This document shows positions 28,023 to 34,796 of a DNA stretch of 64,000 nucleotides, piece by piece; the first letter of the stretch is position 1, and the number at the start of each line of letters is the position of its first letter. Under the pieces are notes generated by a model. It made no database searches. It had not been told where the DNA came from and saw only the letters and a list, made by a program, of their open reading frames with translations. Source of the stretch: Bradyrhizobium septentrionale (lineage in GTDB: Bacteria > Pseudomonadota > Alphaproteobacteria > Rhizobiales > Xanthobacteraceae); assembly GCF_011516645.4 (NCBI RefSeq), contig NZ_CP088285.1:7520501-7584500 (forward strand), read 5' to 3'. The position numbers were made by a program, and so were the translations under genes.

Positions 28023-28096
28023 CGCGCATTGTCGTACGATTGTTGCACCAGTACCGGACAACCACAGGAAGTTTGGCACAATTGCGGAGTCGCGCG

Positions 28097-29192
28097 ATGT
28101 CGAGAACGGTCGTTGCACGGGGCTGGTTCCTGGGCGCCTTGTTGGGCTGGCTTGGCGCCATTGCGCTTTATCCGAGCGCGGCGTCGGCCTGGGGCTATGA
28201 GGGCCATCGCGTCGTCGGTGCGATCGCCGACCAATTGCTCAAGCCCGCCGCGAAGGCGAAGGTCCAGCAACTCCTCAACGAGGGGGACAGGCATGGCATC
28301 GACCTGCGCAAGTCCGGACCCTGGCTCGATTGCGTGAAGAGCGTCGCCCGTCACGATGACGGCCGATTTCATTACGAGGTCGACCCCGAACATCTCGACT
28401 ACGAGGTGCCCTGTACGCCGTTCAACTCGGCGCGGGAGAGGGCGCGCATGGTGGATTATGCCGCCCGCAACTGGTCGACCTGCTCCTACAAGCCCGACGG
28501 CTTCGAGCGCGGTTGTCACAACACCTTCCATTTCGTCGATGTCGCGATCCAGCGCAGCACCTTCGACCGCAGCTTCCAGGGGACCAATCCGCACGATCTG
28601 GTCGCGGCGGTCAGCGCCGCCATCGCGGTGCTGCAGGACAAGCCGATCCCGTCGCCGTTCCCGTTCTCGATCAAGGACAAGAAGGAGGCGCTGCTGCTGC
28701 TCGCGCATCTGATCGGCGACCTGCACCAGCCGCTGCATGTCGGCTCGGTCTATCTCGATCCCAACGGCCAGCCGGTCGACCCGGACGTTAGTCACCAGGT
28801 CGATCCCGGGAGCGATACGATCGGCGGCAATGCGATCCAGGATGGCGTCGCGGTCCCATACCATCAACCTGCATCATGAATGGGACGACATCCCGACCGA
28901 CCTCGGCGATGCCGCGACGGGTGAACTGATCGACGCGGCGAAGGCGGTCCCGGCGAGCCCGGGTACGCCGGACGGTTGGCCGGCGGCCTGGGCGACCGAC
29001 ACGCTGCTGGTCGCGCATGACGCGTTCAAGGGACTGAGCTTCGGCCCGACGTCGCCGCCGGCGCAGTCCAAATGGATTGTCAATTTCGACAGCCACATGG
29101 GCTATCTGCAGGCCGCCGACGCGACCAAGCGCCGGCAACTCGCCAAGGGCGGCGCGAGATTGGCCGAACTGCTGAATGCAATATGGCCGTGA
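28097..29192 (+). pseudogene. S1/P1-type nuclease broken by a one-base frameshift
   Basis: The 5' frame (28097 to a stop at 28879) encodes a signal peptide ending in ASA followed by WGYEGHRVVG. In this family the mature N-terminal Trp and the His at position 6 bind zinc. LIGDLHQPLHVGSVY gives further ligands. The last ligands, NLHHEWD, lie in the next frame, which continues to 29192 with DTLLVAHDAFKG and FDSHMGYLQAAD. Removing one C from CCC at 28855-28857 joins the two frames into a protein of normal length. As read, the enzyme would lack two zinc ligands. A sequencing error remains possible. Confidence 0.82.
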
Positions 29193-29346
29193 GGGGTAGC
29201 CCATCCATACATCCGAATAGCCACCGGCGCTCCTTGCTTTCGCGCCTATGCGATTGCTTAATCGAGGAAATCCGCGCGAACGGCGCTGCTGTCGTCGGAC
29301 GCGATAAACTCGTGCGCATGAGCGCTTCTGCGATCGGAATGCAGGT

Positions 29347-30105
29347 ATGACGTCTGACTGCTGCCCTGAGCTCGACTTTGGCCAAGCTTCCGGCGCGGGC
29401 AGGGAGCCGGCATTGCCCAGTCCGAGCTATTTGGACGAGGCCGTCGAGTTGCGAGCCGGGATCATCGTGCCGGTTCTCGAGAGTGATGGCTTGGAGGTCC
29501 TGGCCTTCACGCTCGATGTGGAGCCGGACATCGTTCGCGCGACAGGCGTTTGCCTCAACGACGGGGAGCGTCGGCGCGCGGCGGGGCTGAGGCTGGAGCG
29601 GGACCGCCGCCGCTTTGTTGTGGCCCGCGGCCAGCTGCGCCGGGTCCTCGCTTCCAGACTGGGAATTGCGCCGTCCGCCGTCGAGTTCGAATATGGACCG
29701 CTGGGCAAACCTCAGCTCTCGCACCGCATGCACGCCCGCGATTTGCGCTTCAGCGTCTCGCGTTCCGGAGATGTGGGGGTCATCGCCCTCTCGACCACGC
29801 AAGAGGTCGGGGTGGACATCGAGGCGGTTGTCCCTGTGCCCGAAGCGGACGAGATCGCAGCGCTCTGCTTTTCCGCCTCCGAATATGGGTCCTACACCGC
29901 CCTTGGTCCGGAAGACCGCCTGGCAGGCTTCTTCCGGCGTTGGACGCGGCTGGAGGCTGTCTCCAAGACGTTGGGGTGCGGCCTGGGACAGCCCGTTTCC
30001 TGGGATGAAAAGGATTGGCTTGTTCGAAGGTTCGTACCTCTAAGTGGGTATATCGGGAGCGTGGTCATCCGGAACTGGCGTTCGCGCGATGTCACGATGC
30101 ACTAA
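29347..30105 (+). CDS. 4'-phosphopantetheinyl transferase, Sfp type
   Basis: A 252-residue enzyme that transfers phosphopantetheine from CoA to a conserved Ser of carrier proteins. The two Mg/catalytic motifs are EVGVDIEAVVPVPEADEIA and FFRRWTRLEAVSKTLGCGL; the usual Lys before Glu-Ala is Leu here, but the Glu and downstream Lys are kept, as in other proteobacterial Sfp proteins. The DRRRFVVARGQLRRVLA helix and GPLGKPQL are also family features. It is the first gene of a rightward set with the carrier-protein gene at 31201, its obvious client. A gap of 57 bases separates it from the thioesterase gene. Confidence 0.92.
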   Translation: MTSDCCPELDFGQASGAGREPALPSPSYLDEAVELRAGIIVPVLESDGLEVLAFTLDVEPDIVRATGVCLNDGERRRAAGLRLERDRRRFVVARGQLRRVLASRLGIAPSAVEFEYGPLGKPQLSHRMHARDLRFSVSRSGDVGVIALSTTQEVGVDIEAVVPVPEADEIAALCFSASEYGSYTALGPEDRLAGFFRRWTRLEAVSKTLGCGLGQPVSWDEKDWLVRRFVPLSGYIGSVVIRNWRSRDVTMH

Positions 30106-30162
30106 ACGAGGTGTCTCCGCGAAGTCCATTGGACTGCACGGGAGTTCATTCGGGACGGCCCT

Positions 30163-31149
30163 ATGTCAGCGCACTTGATGCAGTTTTCGGAGCTTCTCGC
30201 AGACCTGGCGGTCAAGGACATCAAGGTCTGGGTGGAAGGCGACCGGCTGCGTTGCAACGCCCCGGCTGGCGCACTGACGGCGGAGCTTCGCGGGCAGCTG
30301 CAGGACCGGAAGGGCGAGATCATCGCGTTCCTGAACATGGCCACGGCAGCGGCCACGCAGCAGCCTGCAATCATTCCGCTGCAGTCGCGTGGAACACGCA
30401 CGCCGATTTACGCCGTGCCCGGGCATGTCGGCGCCCCCTTCACATTCTCGGACCTGTCGAAGCACCTGGGCGGCGATCAACCATTCTACGCACTCCAACC
30501 GACCGGCTACGATGGGCAGAGCGAGCCGATGGACCGCGTCGAAGATATCGCCGAGGACTTCGCTCGCCAGATCGTCGAATATCAGCCGACCGGTCCGTAC
30601 ATCATCGCCGGCTATTGCTCCGGCGCTCCAACGGCCTTCGAACTGGCGAAAATCCTGGGACGCCGCGGCGCGGAGGTGCCATGCATTGCGCTGTTTGGCC
30701 CGCTTCATCCCACCACCTATCAGGAACTGCCGCGTTGGCTGTATTTCTCAGCCAGGGAAACCGCCGAAGCCTTGCTGCGAGAGATGGCGAAGCTGCCGAC
30801 ATTCAGCGCTCGTCTGCGATATTTCGGCAGCCGCGTTCGCGAACGTTTCCGCGCCCTCGGAAGCAAACAACCGGTCGCGACAGATCCGGTGCTGGCGAGC
30901 AGAGCTCGGCTCAAATCGACGGCGCTCGCGGCTTTTCAGAGGTACGATCCCACTCCGTATACGGGTCGGGTCTGCATATTCCTTCCGAACAAGGCTTGGC
31001 TGCGATCGGGCGCAGGACCGCGCCGATGGCTTCGCGTGGTGCCTCATGCCGAATTTTATTTTGGGCCAGAGGGCTGTCACGCAGCCTCCATGCTCGAGGA
31101 TCCTGAAGCGCCGGCCATCGCAGAGCTTTATCGCCAGGCCAAGATTTGA
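30163..31149 (+). CDS. TubC-type docking domain fused to a Cys-nucleophile thioesterase
   Basis: A 328-residue protein. Residues 9-57 (LLADLAVKDIKVWVEGDRL, APAGALTAELRGQLQDRKGE) are a TubC N-terminal (beta-hairpin) docking domain, normally found at the start of NRPS subunits. Residues 80-328 are an alpha/beta-hydrolase thioesterase: PIYAVPGHVGAPFTF supplies the oxyanion region, IIAGYCSGAPTAFELA gives GxCxG with Cys152 in the nucleophile position, and His306 lies in PEGCHAASM. It would release or transfer the acyl group from the carrier protein encoded next, which begins 51 bases downstream. A docking domain attached directly to a lone thioesterase is unusual. Confidence 0.88.
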   Translation: MSAHLMQFSELLADLAVKDIKVWVEGDRLRCNAPAGALTAELRGQLQDRKGEIIAFLNMATAAATQQPAIIPLQSRGTRTPIYAVPGHVGAPFTFSDLSKHLGGDQPFYALQPTGYDGQSEPMDRVEDIAEDFARQIVEYQPTGPYIIAGYCSGAPTAFELAKILGRRGAEVPCIALFGPLHPTTYQELPRWLYFSARETAEALLREMAKLPTFSARLRYFGSRVRERFRALGSKQPVATDPVLASRARLKSTALAAFQRYDPTPYTGRVCIFLPNKAWLRSGAGPRRWLRVVPHAEFYFGPEGCHAASMLEDPEAPAIAELYRQAKI

Positions 31150-31200
31150 ACGATTGACGCGTGATTTGATTTATTTGATTTGCCTGATGGGAGCGTAGTC

Positions 31201-33168
31201 ATGAATGAAGTCCTGCCCATTGTGGAGGAGGGCGTAGCGCTTCCCCTGCGGAAGGATACCGATCATCAGGCGCTGGTTGTCGAGTACAACGCCACGGCGG
31301 CGCACTACCCGTCGGACCGGACGATCATCGATCTCGTTCGCGACCAGGTGACGCGCAGCCCTGACGCTGAAGCGATCCGCTTCGGCGATGTAGCGCTGAC
31401 CTACCGGCAGCTCGACGAACGCTCCAATCAGATGGCTGCGCATTTGAGCGCGACCGGGGTGGGGCCGGGCCGGATTGCCGTTGTGTTCATGGAACACTCC
31501 ATTGAGGTCGTTGTCGCGATCCTGGGCGTACTGAAGTCCGGTGCAGCCTATGTGCCGGTTGATGCGGCGACGCCGAAGGGGCGCATCGCAACAATCCTGA
31601 AGGACATCTCCAACGGCACCGACGGGCGGGCGCCGGTGGCGGTGACGCAGGCGCGCCTGCAATCCGTCATTTCCCCTGATCTCGCCGACATTTTCGTGCT
31701 CGACTCCGATTTCGGTTCGATTTTGGATCAGCCGGACTTAGCCCGGCCGTCCGCTGCCACGCCGGATGGCACCGCCTATATCATCTTCACCTCCGGCTCG
31801 ACCGGCACCCCCAAGGGCGTCGAGATCGCGCACCGGAGCCTGGTGAATTACATCTGGTGGGCCGCGCGGGTTTACAGTTCCGGCGAGCCTCTCGCATGGC
31901 CGCTGTTCTCATCTCTCGCCTTCGACCTGACCGTCACAACGCTCTTCACGCCGCTCATCACCGGCGGCCGCATCGTGGTCTATCTTGGTGATCCCGGCGC
32001 GCAGGGCATGGTCGCGCTCAAGGTGGTCGACGACAATGCGGTCGACATCATGAAGCTGACGCCGGCGCATCTCGCGATGATCCGCGACCGCGATCTCGAA
32101 ACCACAAGACTGCGCAAGTTCATCGTGGGCGGCGAGGACTTCAAGACCGAGTTGGCTCGCGACATCACGAAAGCCATCCCGCATCCGGTCGAGATCTACA
32201 ATGAATACGGACCAACCGAAGCCACTGTGGGCTGCATGATTCACCGTTTCGACATCGAGCGCGATCAATCCGCGTCGGTGCCGATCGGCGTTCCGGCCGC
32301 CAACGCGGGAATCTACGTCCTCAGCGAAGCCTATCAGCCCACCGGCACCGGCATCATCGGTGAGATGTTCATTGCCGGCGACGGTCTCGCGAGAGGCTAT
32401 TTCAATCGCCCAGACCTCACCGACGAGCGCTTCCGCACCGCCGTCGATCCGCGAGACGGATACTCGAAGCTGCGGCTCTACAAGACGGGCGATCTCGCCC
32501 GTTGGAGCGCGGACGGGCGCCTGGAATTTCTCGGCCGCGCCGATCATCAGGTGAAGGTCGGTGGCGCGCGTATCGAGCTGGGCGAGATCGAAGCGCGGCT
32601 TCTCAAGCACCCGCAGGTGCAGGAATGCGCCGTCGCTGTCATCGAACCGTCAGCGGCCGAAGGCGGCATCGCACGACTTGCGGCCTACTATGTCTCGTCG
32701 AAACCTCTGACGGTGGCGGACCTGCGCGCCCATCTCGCCGAAGAGCTGCTCGAGGCGATGATTCCGACGCACTATGTTCGCCTCGAACGGATGCCGCTCA
32801 CGCCCAACGGCAAGGTCGACCGCGCCTCGCTTCCCGAGCCGACGGCAGAAAACATCCAGCCGGCACAGGAATTCGTCGCTCCCTCGACAGAGACCGAGAA
32901 GACGCTGGCCGCGCTGTGGTGCGATCTCCTGAAGGTCAAGTCGATCGGACGTCACGACAACTTCTTCGATCTTGGCGGCGAGTCGCTGCTCGTGGTCCGG
33001 ACGGTGGCGCGCATGCGAAAGACCTTCGGCGTCGACGTGCAGCTGCGCAATCTGTTCGAGCGCCCGACACTGGCCGAACTGGCGGAAGTGATCGACGGAA
33101 TGCGCTGGCTGGCCGATTCCGATGCCGCTGCACCCTCGGCGGGACCGAGAGAGGAAATCGAACTCTAG
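31201..33168 (+). CDS. Stand-alone NRPS adenylation-carrier (A-T) protein, predicted Asn-specific
   Basis: A 655-residue protein with one adenylation domain and one carrier domain. Core motifs are YIIFTSGSTGTPKGVEIAH (A3, near residue 193), NEYGPTEATVGCM (A5), GDLARWSADGRLEFLGR (A7) and NGKVDRASLP (A10). The carrier shows DNFFDLGGESLLVV with attachment Ser595. Aligned to GrsA, the ten specificity positions read D-L-T-K-I-G-E-V-G-K, the code for asparagine. Residues 29-37 (YNATAAHYP) resemble the linker that follows a condensation domain, but none is present. Start ATG 31201. It lies between the docking-thioesterase and the dehydrogenase genes. Confidence 0.93.
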   Translation: MNEVLPIVEEGVALPLRKDTDHQALVVEYNATAAHYPSDRTIIDLVRDQVTRSPDAEAIRFGDVALTYRQLDERSNQMAAHLSATGVGPGRIAVVFMEHSIEVVVAILGVLKSGAAYVPVDAATPKGRIATILKDISNGTDGRAPVAVTQARLQSVISPDLADIFVLDSDFGSILDQPDLARPSAATPDGTAYIIFTSGSTGTPKGVEIAHRSLVNYIWWAARVYSSGEPLAWPLFSSLAFDLTVTTLFTPLITGGRIVVYLGDPGAQGMVALKVVDDNAVDIMKLTPAHLAMIRDRDLETTRLRKFIVGGEDFKTELARDITKAIPHPVEIYNEYGPTEATVGCMIHRFDIERDQSASVPIGVPAANAGIYVLSEAYQPTGTGIIGEMFIAGDGLARGYFNRPDLTDERFRTAVDPRDGYSKLRLYKTGDLARWSADGRLEFLGRADHQVKVGGARIELGEIEARLLKHPQVQECAVAVIEPSAAEGGIARLAAYYVSSKPLTVADLRAHLAEELLEAMIPTHYVRLERMPLTPNGKVDRASLPEPTAENIQPAQEFVAPSTETEKTLAALWCDLLKVKSIGRHDNFFDLGGESLLVVRTVARMRKTFGVDVQLRNLFERPTLAELAEVIDGMRWLADSDAAAPSAGPREEIEL

Positions 33169-33194
33169 CTGCTGGCAGAGAGCGGACAAACACG

Positions 33195-34364
33195 ATGGAC
33201 AAAGCTTGGGTGCCGCCGCAAGGACCGGGACTGCCTTGGATGGCGGCGGAGTATGAGCTGTTGCGTGACCAGGTCCGCCGGTTCGTCGAGGAGGAGATCA
33301 AGCCCTGTGCGGACCGCTGGGAAGAGGAGGGGTTCATTCCCCGTCCGGTCCTGCGCCGCATGGGCGAACTCGGCTTCTTCGGCATCCGTTACCCGTCCGA
33401 ATATGGCGGTGCCGAGATGGACGCGGTCGCGTCAACGGTGTTCGCCGAGGAACTCGGGCGCTCGACCTATGGCGGCGTCGCCGACGCGATGCTGGTCCAG
33501 GCCGACATGGCGTCTGTATATGTCTTTCACGACGGGACCAAAGCCCAGCGGGCCCGCTGGATGCCTAGAATCGTCAGCGGCGAGGTGATCACCGCGGTCG
33601 CCATCACGGAGCCGGATGCCGGCTCGGACGTGAAGGCCATCCGCACGCGCGCGGTGCGAGAAGGCGACTCTTACGTCCTCAACGGCACCAAGCTCTACAT
33701 CACGAACGGCGTCCACGCCGATCTCTACTGCGTCGCCGCCAAGACCAATCCCGCGGCTGGAGGCAACGGGATCACGATGTTCCTGGTCGAGAAAGGCACG
33801 CCGGGCTTTACCGTCGGACGCGTGCTGGACAAGCAGGGCTGGCGCTCCTCCGATACGGCCGAACTCGTCTTCGACGGTTGCCGGATCCCCGCCGAGAACG
33901 TGCTGGGCGCTGAGGGGCAGGGCTTCTACTCCATCATGCGCAACTTCCAGAACGAGCGCCTGGTCCTCTCCGCTATGGCGATCGGGATGGCCGAGGCAGC
34001 GATCGACATGACCCTCACCTACGTGAAGACCCGCCGCGCCTTCGGCGGCGTCCTGTGGGACATGCAGGCGATCCGCCAACGTCTGGCGCTGCTCTCCGCG
34101 AAGGTGGAGGCAAACCGCGCGCTTCTCTATGCCACCGCCTGGCGTATGGCGGCCGACGATGATTGCCTGCGCGAGATCTCGATGCTGAAGGCGATCTGCG
34201 CCGAACTCGTCAACGAGGTCGCGTATGCCTGCGTGCAGTTCCATGGTGCCATGGGCGTCATGCGCGAGAGCCCGATCGAGCGCATCGCGCGTGATGCGCG
34301 CATACTGCCCATTGCCGGCGGCGCGACGGAGGTGATGCTCGAGGTGATCGCGTCGACGTCGTGA
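33195..34364 (+). CDS. Acyl-CoA dehydrogenase-like flavoprotein, probable carrier-bound aminoacyl oxidase
   Basis: A 389-residue FAD enzyme of the acyl-CoA dehydrogenase superfamily. Motifs are AVAITEPDAGSDVKAIRTRA and LNGTKLYITNGVHADL (flavin and substrate binding) and QFHGAMGVMRESPIERIARD near the C-terminus. At the medium-chain catalytic position the sequence is AGGATE, not YEGT, but Glu254 in FQNERLVLSA matches the alternative catalytic Glu of isovaleryl-CoA and long-chain dehydrogenases. It starts 26 bases after the A-T gene. In stand-alone prolyl-carrier systems (PltE type) such an enzyme oxidises the tethered amino acid, and the same role on Asn is inferred here. Confidence 0.88.
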   Translation: MDKAWVPPQGPGLPWMAAEYELLRDQVRRFVEEEIKPCADRWEEEGFIPRPVLRRMGELGFFGIRYPSEYGGAEMDAVASTVFAEELGRSTYGGVADAMLVQADMASVYVFHDGTKAQRARWMPRIVSGEVITAVAITEPDAGSDVKAIRTRAVREGDSYVLNGTKLYITNGVHADLYCVAAKTNPAAGGNGITMFLVEKGTPGFTVGRVLDKQGWRSSDTAELVFDGCRIPAENVLGAEGQGFYSIMRNFQNERLVLSAMAIGMAEAAIDMTLTYVKTRRAFGGVLWDMQAIRQRLALLSAKVEANRALLYATAWRMAADDDCLREISMLKAICAELVNEVAYACVQFHGAMGVMRESPIERIARDARILPIAGGATEVMLEVIASTS

Positions 34365-34796
34365 ACCTCGTGTGGCAGTGAGGCGATCGGGAGAGGTCGC
34401 GGAGGGCGTCCGGCCGCGGCTCTTCGTCAAACGGCCAATTCCATCGTCAAGCGCTGTTCGGCTTCAGCCTCGGTGCAAACGCCCATATCCGTAATTCGCA
34501 TAAGGTATATTATGGAATATTTATATCTACAATTAGATCAGATATTTAGTGGGAAATCTTCGCACCGGTCCGCAAGTTAGCGCCGTCCCGAGGTCCATCC
34601 GACGATCCGTTGGGCTTGCTCCCAGGCCGCAGCGATCCACGTCCGCGCGTCTCGTCTGAAAGCCGATATTGCCGCGGCATGCGGACGCTGCAATAAGCCC
34701 CAGCTGTGCAGAGATCGCTGGTGACCCCGCGCCATCAATCAGGTCCGTATAGGATGGCATCTCAGAACAACAACAAGCCTCTCTTGGGAGAAACCA
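34365..34796. other. AT-rich intergenic region before the TRAP transporter operon
   Basis: A 432-base gap with no convincing gene. Its centre (about 34490-34550) is markedly AT-rich compared with the surroundings and holds the inverted repeat at 34495-34517, so it most likely contains the promoter and operator of the transporter operon. The dctP start is preceded by a purine-rich stretch ending in GGGAG. Confidence 0.5.
34495..34517. promoter_or_regulatory. Inverted repeat, candidate operator for the TRAP operon
   Basis: TTCGCATAA at 34495-34503 faces TTATGGAA at 34510-34517 across six bases, complementary except for one missing base. It sits in the AT-rich core of the gap about 280 bases before dctP. 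The form suits a dimeric repressor of IclR or GntR type; no such regulator gene is in the neighbourhood, so the cognate factor is unknown. Confidence 0.35.

What the first reader, a model, noticed from the sequence alone, without database searches (positions are those of the whole stretch)
29347..34364. Minimal NRPS-like cassette with no condensation domain: PPTase, docking-thioesterase, Asn-type A-T and an acyl-CoA-dehydrogenase-like enzyme
Four adjacent rightward genes (gaps 57, 51 and 26 bases) supply carrier activation, amino-acid loading, oxidation and release. The layout parallels stand-alone prolyl-carrier pyrrole systems, but the specificity residues read Asn. The expected product is a modified single amino acid, for example a 2,3-dehydro-Asn or derived compound, and the oxidation step is inferred. 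I know no described pathway with this exact set.
Basis: partly seen in the sequence, partly recalled or inferred. Interest (0 to 1): 0.85.

Follow-up and report, generated by a model that had tools for sequence, protein, structure and literature searches.

The report
Asparagine carrier module, sugar-coat link
Four neighbouring genes in a soil bacterium look set to load the amino acid asparagine onto a carrier protein, oxidise it and hand it on through a docked enzyme, and relatives hint that the asparagine-derived group may end up on the cell's sugar coat.

Summary
The four genes and gaps are real (57, 51, 26 bases). All four, in order, occur in 22 of 22 other genomes whose stretch is long enough (Bradyrhizobium, Mesorhizobium, Nitrobacter, Microvirga), with dN/dS 0.10-0.44. 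The A-T code is Asn-like in 85 of 86 readable relatives. It is not a prolyl-pyrrole system. The closest known thing is the stand-alone Asn module CysH/AlbIV (cystobactamid, albicidin): in 6 of 22 genomes the same A domain carries an SGGKD insert fitting the published AMDH domain, and uninterrupted relatives keep remnants of its edges, so the window gene is probably a natural CysH without AMDH. The 'thioesterase' family has an invariant Cys nucleophile and no conserved catalytic His or Asp; it holds the genome's only TubC_N docking domain, facing a conserved A-T tail: more likely a docked shuttle than a hydrolase. The ACAD has the LCAD/IVD-type Glu254. A PF13480 acyltransferase, often in polysaccharide clusters, is in 14 of 14 cassette genomes and 6 of 181 others of the genus. 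Best reading: carrier-bound (dehydro)Asn handed on by the TE, possibly to surface polysaccharide. No activity is shown.

The parts
29347..30105 (+). 4'-phosphopantetheinyl transferase (arms the carrier domain)
   Evidence: PF01648 50.9 bits, PF22624 33 bits. GVDIE motif in 23 of 23 relatives; the usual WTxKEA motif (recalled) reads WTx[L/M]EA in 23 of 23, i.e. Lys replaced, Glu kept.
30163..31149 (+). TubC_N (beta-hairpin) docking domain + thioesterase-fold protein with Cys nucleophile (Cys152); proposed aminoacyl shuttle
   Evidence: PF18563 73.1 bits, residues 10-57; PF00975 65.5 bits. Cys152 in 121 of 121 sequences. AlphaFold model mean pLDDT 90.8; the 50 Foldseek matches listed are thioesterase domains or proteins that contain one. 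Only TubC_N match in the 10.4-Mb genome.
31201..33168 (+). A-T didomain, Asn-type code DLTKIGEVG, carrier Ser595, A10 Lys538, C-terminal tail GPREEIEL; no AMDH insert
   Evidence: TIGR01733 416 bits; code and motifs; tail GPREE[IVL]E[LIF] in 22 of 22 relatives whose tail is present.
33142..33165 (+). C-terminal docking tail GPREEIEL (presumed short linear motif for the TE's TubC_N domain)
   Evidence: One match to the back-translated pattern in the window, 0.00 expected; conservation. Binding is inferred.
32610..32670 (+). approximate place (about residues 470-490 of A-T) where 6 of 22 other genomes carry a ~340-aa SGGKD insert; the window has a short remnant-like EPSAAEGG
33195..34364 (+). 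acyl-CoA-dehydrogenase-fold flavoprotein; Glu254 at the LCAD/IVD catalytic place; proposed C-alpha/C-beta oxidation of carrier-bound Asn
   Evidence: PF00441, PF02771, PF02770. Glu254 in 29 of 29 loci and Gly375 at the MCAD-type place in 29 of 29 (31 loci examined, 2 lack the gene because the contig ends; the 29 stand for 22 distinct genomes). Alignments.

Best explanation
The cassette is a stand-alone asparagine-modifying carrier module of the CysH/AlbIV kind that has lost its AMDH domain. The PPTase arms the T domain. The A domain activates L-Asn and loads it on Ser595. The ACAD takes a proton from C-alpha (Glu254) and a hydride from C-beta (FAD), giving carrier-bound 2,3-dehydro-Asn (enamine/imine). 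The TE binds the A-T tail GPREEIEL through its TubC_N domain, takes the aminoacyl group onto Cys152 and passes it to an acceptor rather than hydrolysing it. The likely next step is a PF13480 (GNAT/FemAB-like) acyltransferase, often encoded in surface-polysaccharide clusters, so the end product would be an Asn-derived substituent on a polysaccharide or its precursor. Shown: gene set, conservation, domains and motifs, the docking-domain/tail pair as sequences, AMDH remnants, co-occurrence. Inferred: Asn loading, the ACAD reaction on the carrier, tail binding, the shuttle, the polysaccharide end point.
For: Asn: DLTKIGEVG in 85 of 86 relatives of the clade with all nine positions readable and in 88 of 89 SGGKD-bearing proteins with readable code; PMC7966384 passages: CysH loads Asn (also Gln, isoAsn, cyano-Ala), not Asp, and without AMDH only loads it. 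AMDH kinship: insert with SGGKDSS, 339 aa, WbuX model 143 bits; remnants in uninterrupted genes; most AMDH forms basal in the tree. Docking: one TubC_N in the genome, conserved tail, TubC_N, TE, A, insert and T in one ORF in P0241. Shuttle: Cys152 121/121, no conserved His/Asp. ACAD: Glu254 29/29; PMC11153573 passages name IVD Glu254 and LCAD Glu291 as base. Partner: acyltransferase in 14 of 14 cassette genomes, 6 of 181 others (Fisher 4.7e-17); in the own genome it stands with Poly_export, sugar transferase, flippase-type and Wzy-type genes. An asparagine synthase B lies beside the acyltransferase or the cassette in six genomes: the window's (128 bases apart), L097, L034, L045, L073, L074. 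Selection: dN/dS 0.10-0.44.
Against: No activity is shown. The window's own TE has His306, so hydrolysis is not excluded. The co-occurrence is not corrected for common descent, and its searches scored at most 8 to 11 candidates a genome. The acyltransferase is absent from both Microvirga genomes tested. In the window's genome it lies 6.3 Mb from the cassette. In two cassette-free genomes read (L098, L101) it stands among genes that do not look like a polysaccharide cluster by eye, and in 5 of 20 genus matches the matched stretch holds a stop codon (G019, G066, G175, G197, G205). The A-T-TE neighbour is in only 4 of 14 cassette genomes and in 12 without. The acyltransferase model failed (pLDDT 37.8). 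No CysH, AlbIV or CysB sequence was compared. Tree support at the key nodes is 0.62 and 0.63, and 0.0 for one AMDH group.
Confidence: 0.45

Rival explanations
1. One reading: the TE hydrolyses the modified Asn from the carrier and a free modified amino acid (for example dehydro-Asn, which would collapse to an oxo acid) is the product.
For: Thioesterase fold; the window TE has His306 in the loop after the last strand; in Nitrobacter (L043) and Microvirga (L044, L046) the four genes stand without the acyltransferase or other genes of the polysaccharide region in the stretch read (flanks partly scanned).
Against: His306 is in only 8 of 121 sequences, the usual Asp place is Gly in 109 of 121, the nucleophile is Cys in 121 of 121. 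A free enamine amino acid would be unstable (chemical inference).
Confidence: 0.2
2. The TE works exactly like CysB: it moves the modified Asn to a T domain of a large NRPS elsewhere in the genome, and the product is a peptide.
For: The genome has several large NRPSs (28 Condensation matches); CysB does this in cystobactamid (PMC7966384, section 8).
Against: TubC_N occurs once in the genome, on the TE, so no NRPS carries one; in 18 named loci (up to 9 kb each side) the only further match to A-T was the A-T-TE protein of L034 and L045 (E <= 1e-15). NRPS modules with an inactive A domain were not searched.
Confidence: 0.15
3. The ACAD does not act on Asn-carrier but on an acyl-CoA or acyl chain, and the unit makes an acyl-asparagine.
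For: The ACAD resembles ordinary acyl-CoA dehydrogenases; an A-T-TE with a FadD-like A domain and the acyltransferase are neighbours in L034, L045, L073 and L074.
Against: The ACAD stands directly behind A-T in the window and in 22 of 22 other genomes, whereas the A-T-TE was not found in 10 of 14 cassette genomes.
Confidence: 0.15

Closest known systems
CysH / AlbIV stand-alone Asn module with shuttle CysB (cystobactamid, albicidin; PMC7966384, abstract, section 8 and passages seen)
   Same: Stand-alone A-T for L-Asn, tailoring on the carrier, separate shuttle protein; relatives of the window gene carry an SGGKD insert inside the A domain.
   Different: The window gene lacks the insert; the tailoring enzyme is an ACAD, not the hydroxylase CysJ and methyltransferase CysQ; the presumed shuttle is a TubC_N + TE-fold protein; no pABA assembly line was seen near it.
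Prolyl-carrier dehydrogenase systems (PltE/PltF/PltL, RedW/RedM/RedO, AnaB/AnaC/AnaD; names recalled)
   Same: A domain, carrier, ACAD-type oxidation of a carrier-bound amino acid, condensation-free.
   Different: Asn not Pro code; ACAD far below the prolyl-PCP dehydrogenase cut-off (249 of 650 bits).
SyrC and CmaE aminoacyl shuttles (named in PMC7966384 section 8; their A-T partners and Cys residue recalled)
   Same: A-T loads, a tailoring enzyme acts on the carrier, an alpha/beta-hydrolase-type protein moves the group on.
   Different: Halogenase there (recalled), ACAD here; TubC_N docking domain here; acceptor unknown.
SLiM / beta-hairpin docking pairs (EpoA/EpoB, TubC, Bamb_5917/5915; PMC13324335, passages seen)
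   Same: C-terminal tail after a carrier domain and N-terminal TubC_N-type domain on the partner.
   Different: The docking domain sits on a free-standing TE-fold protein rather than on a C or Cy domain. The letters of published tails were not compared.

Membership tests
CysH-type stand-alone Asn module | A domain with Asn-type specificity code | tested here: met
   DLTKIGEVG, the same as in 88 of 89 SGGKD-bearing proteins with readable code; that this code means Asn is recalled and agrees with PMC7966384 passages
CysH-type stand-alone Asn module | AMDH domain (about 38 kDa, SGGKD) inserted in the A domain | tested here: not met
   Absent from the window gene; insert present in 6 of 22 other genomes; remnants of its edges in uninterrupted genes
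CysH-type stand-alone Asn module | loads L-Asn and is unloaded by a shuttle to another carrier | not testable with these tools
   needs protein MS
AMDH domain (insert in relatives such as L045) | SGGKD motif, about 38 kDa, inside an Asn-type A domain | tested here: met
   SGGKDSS, 339 aa; criteria from PMC7966384 passages. Direct identity to CysH/AlbIV not tested.
N-acetyl sugar amidotransferase (WbuX, TIGR03573) for the insert | score over the 203.2-bit cut-off | tested here: not met
   143.4 and 152.3 bits
Prolyl-PCP dehydrogenase (PltE/RedW) | NCBIfam NF045652 over its 650-bit cut-off | tested here: not met
   249 bits
Acyl-CoA dehydrogenase, LCAD/IVD type | catalytic Glu on helix G, not in the J-K loop | tested here: met
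   Glu254 29/29 and Gly375 29/29 loci; rule from PMC11153573 passages; no structure of the window protein was made
Hydrolytic thioesterase | conserved Ser/Cys-His-Asp triad | tested here: not met
   For the family: Cys152 121/121; residue 306 His in 8 of 121; residue 179 Gly in 109 of 121, Asp in 1. The window itself has His306. His88 invariant in 62 of 62, role unknown. Places judged from alignment and predicted strands, not from distances.
CysB/CmaE/SyrC aminoacyl shuttle | sequence kinship to CysB and acyl transfer between carriers | not tested
   No CysB sequence was at hand; activity needs experiment
SLiM / beta-hairpin docking pair | TubC_N domain on one partner, conserved C-terminal tail after the carrier domain of the other | tested here: met
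   PF18563 73.1 bits, the only match in the genome; tail in 22 of 22. Binding not tested.

The most novel reading that the evidence does not exclude
A nonribosomal-peptide-type carrier module makes 2,3-dehydro-asparagine (or its cyclised aminomaleimide form), and a docked Cys-type TE delivers it to a FemAB/GNAT-like transferase that puts it on a bacterial surface polysaccharide: a thiotemplated aminoacyl decoration of exopolysaccharide, evolved by loss of the AMDH domain from a CysH-type antibiotic-building module.
Probability: 0.25. Interest if true: 0.82.

Novelty: new variant of a known kind. Interest (0 to 1): 0.62.

Why it matters
It offers a natural counterpart of the laboratory construct CysH-minus-AMDH with a different tailoring enzyme, so Asn modification on a carrier appears as a swappable platform (AMDH insert, no insert, and in an Asp-coded sister group an FkbM insert). 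It puts a TubC_N docking domain on a free-standing TE. If the polysaccharide link holds, it would join NRPS chemistry to the surface coat of root-nodule bacteria, which can be tested with a few gene removals.

Tried and rejected
Prolyl/pyrrole reading: rejected on code and on NF045652. A-T-TE as fixed partner: rejected, found in 4 of 14 cassette genomes at E <= 1e-200. Structure of the PF13480 acyltransferase: model too poor to use (pLDDT 37.8), no fold search made. T-ACAD fusion P0196: its second half reads like a frameshifted fragment, not used as evidence. Empty-site test at ECH-DctP: of four relatives without the cassette at this place that were read, one (G004) has both flanks, with about 2.65 kb of other DNA in place of the cassette; the other three match only the DctP side, so a clean empty site was not shown. 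The coordinates of the TE model were not in the Python box, so active-site distances were not measured.

Papers (ten searches; only open-licence PMC papers are held): 'interrupted adenylation domain' + amidotransferase + nonribosomal peptide (none); TubC + docking terms (one paper, PMC13324335, passages seen); ACAD + asparagine + A domain terms (listing of 9, none read); 'N-acetyl sugar amidotransferase' + NRPS (none); 'interrupted adenylation domain' (listing of 20, none opened apart from PMC13324335); SyrC/CmaE terms (led to PMC7966384); Bradyrhizobium + exopolysaccharide + NRPS + asparagine synthase (none); ACAD catalytic base (led to PMC11153573, passages seen); exopolysaccharide + aminoacylation terms (listing of 2); albicidin/cystobactamid/Bradyrhizobium (10 of 26 listed, none of the 10 holds Bradyrhizobium). 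I therefore claim only that these searches did not show this set.
Full report
Observation. The first ATG of A-T is at 31201. The nearest named A-T relatives are from Bradyrhizobium (P0122, P0124, P0125, P0127). The window lies in a 10.4-Mb genome at C2:7520501-7584500, which has 28 Condensation matches, none inside the window.

Conservation. A scan of named genomes with the TE gave 19 loci; 18 hold a full-length relative (L029-L046), the 19th, L047, is a short weak match and was dropped. A search of 195 genus genomes gave 14 with the TE, the window's own included. One pair (L039 and G131's L075) has TE genes 98.5% alike, so may be near-duplicates. In 22 of the 23 others the order PPTase-TE-A-T-ACAD is seen whole; in L041 the contig ends inside A-T. 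L029 has an apparent frameshift in A-T. dN/dS between the window and seven relatives is 0.10-0.44 for the four genes, best matching stretch only. Synonymous distance to Mesorhizobium L038 (0.39-0.46) is smaller than to Bradyrhizobium L037 (0.49-0.61), which suggests transfer between genera.

What the A-T protein is. The nine active-site letters read DLTKIGEVG. Of the first 90 proteins listed (P0121-P0210), 86 of the same clade have all nine positions readable: 85 have DLTKIGEVG, one DLTKVGEVG; P0208 is unrelated, P0196 and P0205 lack the region, P0148 is partial. In 6 of the 22 other genomes with complete A-T (L030, L035, L044, L045, L046, L074) the A domain is interrupted after the A8 core by about 340 residues, with an SGGKDSS motif in the two translated, scoring 143 and 152 bits to the WbuX model, below its 203-bit cut-off. 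PMC7966384 (abstract, section 8 and passages seen) describes a 38-kDa AMDH domain with SGGKD, inserted in Asn-specific A domains, in the stand-alone module CysH and in AlbIV: it turns carrier-bound Asn to beta-cyano-Ala or, after hydroxylation, acts as an aminomutase; CysH without AMDH only loads Asn; CysB then moves the group to another carrier. No CysH or AlbIV sequence was available to me, so kinship rests on motif, size, position and code. A search of the window's genome with the insert found no match (no positive control in that search).

AMDH was probably lost here. Uninterrupted relatives can keep both edges of the insert: P0163 reads ..SVAKPATQ-IMAQIGYVEPPVAEDG.., where the interrupted P0165 reads ..SVAKPAVQVRYCERCG [306 residues] RIKEIMAQIGYVEPPAAEDG... 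The window keeps only EPSAAEGG, a weak remnant by itself. In a tree of 107 A-T proteins without the junction, rooted on 4 FkbM forms, 42 AMDH forms lie outside, 60 forms without it inside (five of these are A-T-TE fusions), and one AMDH form (P0165) is nested among them. Support at the two deepest relevant nodes is 0.62 and 0.63, and one AMDH group has 0.0, so the number and order of losses are open and a regain in P0165 is possible.

The TE. It has a TubC_N domain and a thioesterase fold. In 121 sequences (window and 120 listed relatives of 251 found) Cys152 is invariant; residue 305 is Cys in 116; residue 306, in the loop after the last strand where the catalytic His is expected, is Asn 70, Asp 19, Tyr 16, His 8, Arg 3, others or gap 5; residue 179, at the usual Asp place, is Gly in 109. 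The window itself has His306, so it may differ from most. His88, in the loop of the presumed oxyanion hole, is invariant in 62 of 62. The TubC_N domain is the only one in the genome. The A-T tail GPREE[IVL]E[LIF] is present in 22 of 22 relatives that reach it. Of P0121-P0210, 83 of 90 end in this type of tail; the seven exceptions are five A-T-TE fusions, one fragment and one unrelated protein. P0241 holds TubC_N, TE, A, insert and T in one ORF. PMC13324335 (passages) describes such tail/beta-hairpin pairs between NRPS and PKS subunits. I infer that the TE docks on A-T.

The ACAD. Of 31 loci examined 29 have the gene (two contigs end before it; the 29 stand for 22 genomes). Glu254 is present in 29 of 29, and the MCAD-type Glu place is Gly375 in 29 of 29. 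PMC11153573 (passages) states that LCAD (Glu291) and IVD (Glu254 mature) carry the base on helix G. The LCAD chain 8w0t aligns over equal lengths (17-386 to 24-393), which places Glu254 on Glu291 (30-residue leader counted) if there are no compensating gaps. The enzyme is thus fit for alpha,beta-dehydrogenation; the substrate is inferred.

Where it goes. In 12 of the 24 genomes the cassette lies beside some of the genes of a polysaccharide region (LuxR-type regulator, an unnamed gene F21, epimerase; or A-T-TE, acyltransferase, asparagine synthase B, exporter). In 3 Mesorhizobium genomes it lies within 4.1 kb of the acyltransferase; in 5 (window included) beside an enoyl-CoA hydratase gene, with DctP on the other side in 4 of them; in 4 elsewhere. 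In the window's genome the polysaccharide region lies at C2:1249413-1287287 and holds no cassette: acyltransferase (1253263-1254540) and asparagine synthase B (1254669-1256438, minus strand) are neighbours. Ten of its proteins were scanned: epimerase, acyltransferase, asparagine synthase, exporter, sugar transferase, flippase-type, FkbM, radical SAM, Wzy-type, A-T-TE; others were named by eye or not at all. The asparagine synthase B is the only match to itself in that genome at E <= 1e-40.

Partner. The acyltransferase is in 14 of 14 cassette genomes and 6 of 181 others of the genus (Fisher 4.7e-17, not corrected for descent). It is on the same contig within about 35 kb in 9 of 14, 6.3 Mb away in the window's genome, on other contigs in 4. 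In 5 of the 20 matches a stop codon lies in the matched stretch, four of them in cassette genomes; some may be broken or start later. Of 12 named cassette genomes tested (12 of 18) 10 have it, Nitrobacter included; the two Microvirga do not. Its surroundings: polysaccharide genes by scan in the window's genome and an exporter next door in Mesorhizobium L038; glycosyltransferase- and flippase-like ORFs by eye in L093 and L095; no such genes by eye in L098 and L101, both from genomes without the cassette. Against a larger fixed set: the A-T-TE protein is in 16 of 195 genomes, only 4 of the 14 with the cassette.

Verdict. The finding is real. It is more interesting than stated in one way (a docked Cys-type TE, an AMDH-loss variant of a CysH-type module, a possible polysaccharide partner) and less novel in another (Asn loading on a stand-alone module with a shuttle is known). 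My estimates: Asn loading about 0.8, docking 0.85, ACAD on carrier-bound Asn 0.65, shuttle rather than hydrolysis 0.55, polysaccharide end point 0.35.

Noticed in passing
P0213-P0240 (protein hits): A sister group of A-T proteins has an FkbM-type methyltransferase domain (PF05050) with the A domain, an Asp-like code DLTK[IV]GHVG in 25 of 25 with readable code (of 28), and mostly the same REEIEL-type tail.
   Followed up: partly
P0226: A short-chain-dehydrogenase/carrier protein ends in the same kind of tail, EREEIEL, so this tag is used by other carrier proteins too.
   Followed up: no
G000:C1:50996-93220, C1:427110-456899, C2:5326112-5341404: Very large NRPS genes in the same genome; one open frame of 11177 residues holds several Condensation matches with identical scores.
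   Followed up: no
window 28040-29192: Two overlapping ORFs (28040-28879 and 28737-29192) read together like one S1/P1-type nuclease with a frame change; named by eye, not scanned; possibly a broken gene next to the cassette.
   Followed up: no
L034:3601-6216, L045:2146-4848, G000:C2:1284594-1287287: A-T-TE protein with a FadD-like A domain and a Cys in the TE nucleophile motif (GGKCNG in L034), 84% identical between L034 and the window's genome; in 16 of 195 genus genomes, function unknown.
   Followed up: partly
P0183, P0187, P0192, P0193, P0202: The Asn A-T domain fused to a C-terminal thioesterase (PF00975); in P0183, P0187 and P0193 it looks like the TE of the A-T-TE protein, with the tail cut at about REEI.
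   Followed up: no
window 28023-34483 versus L118 6190-8838: The stretch between the enoyl-CoA hydratase and DctP genes holds other DNA in a relative without the cassette (G004): a variable site.
   Followed up: partly
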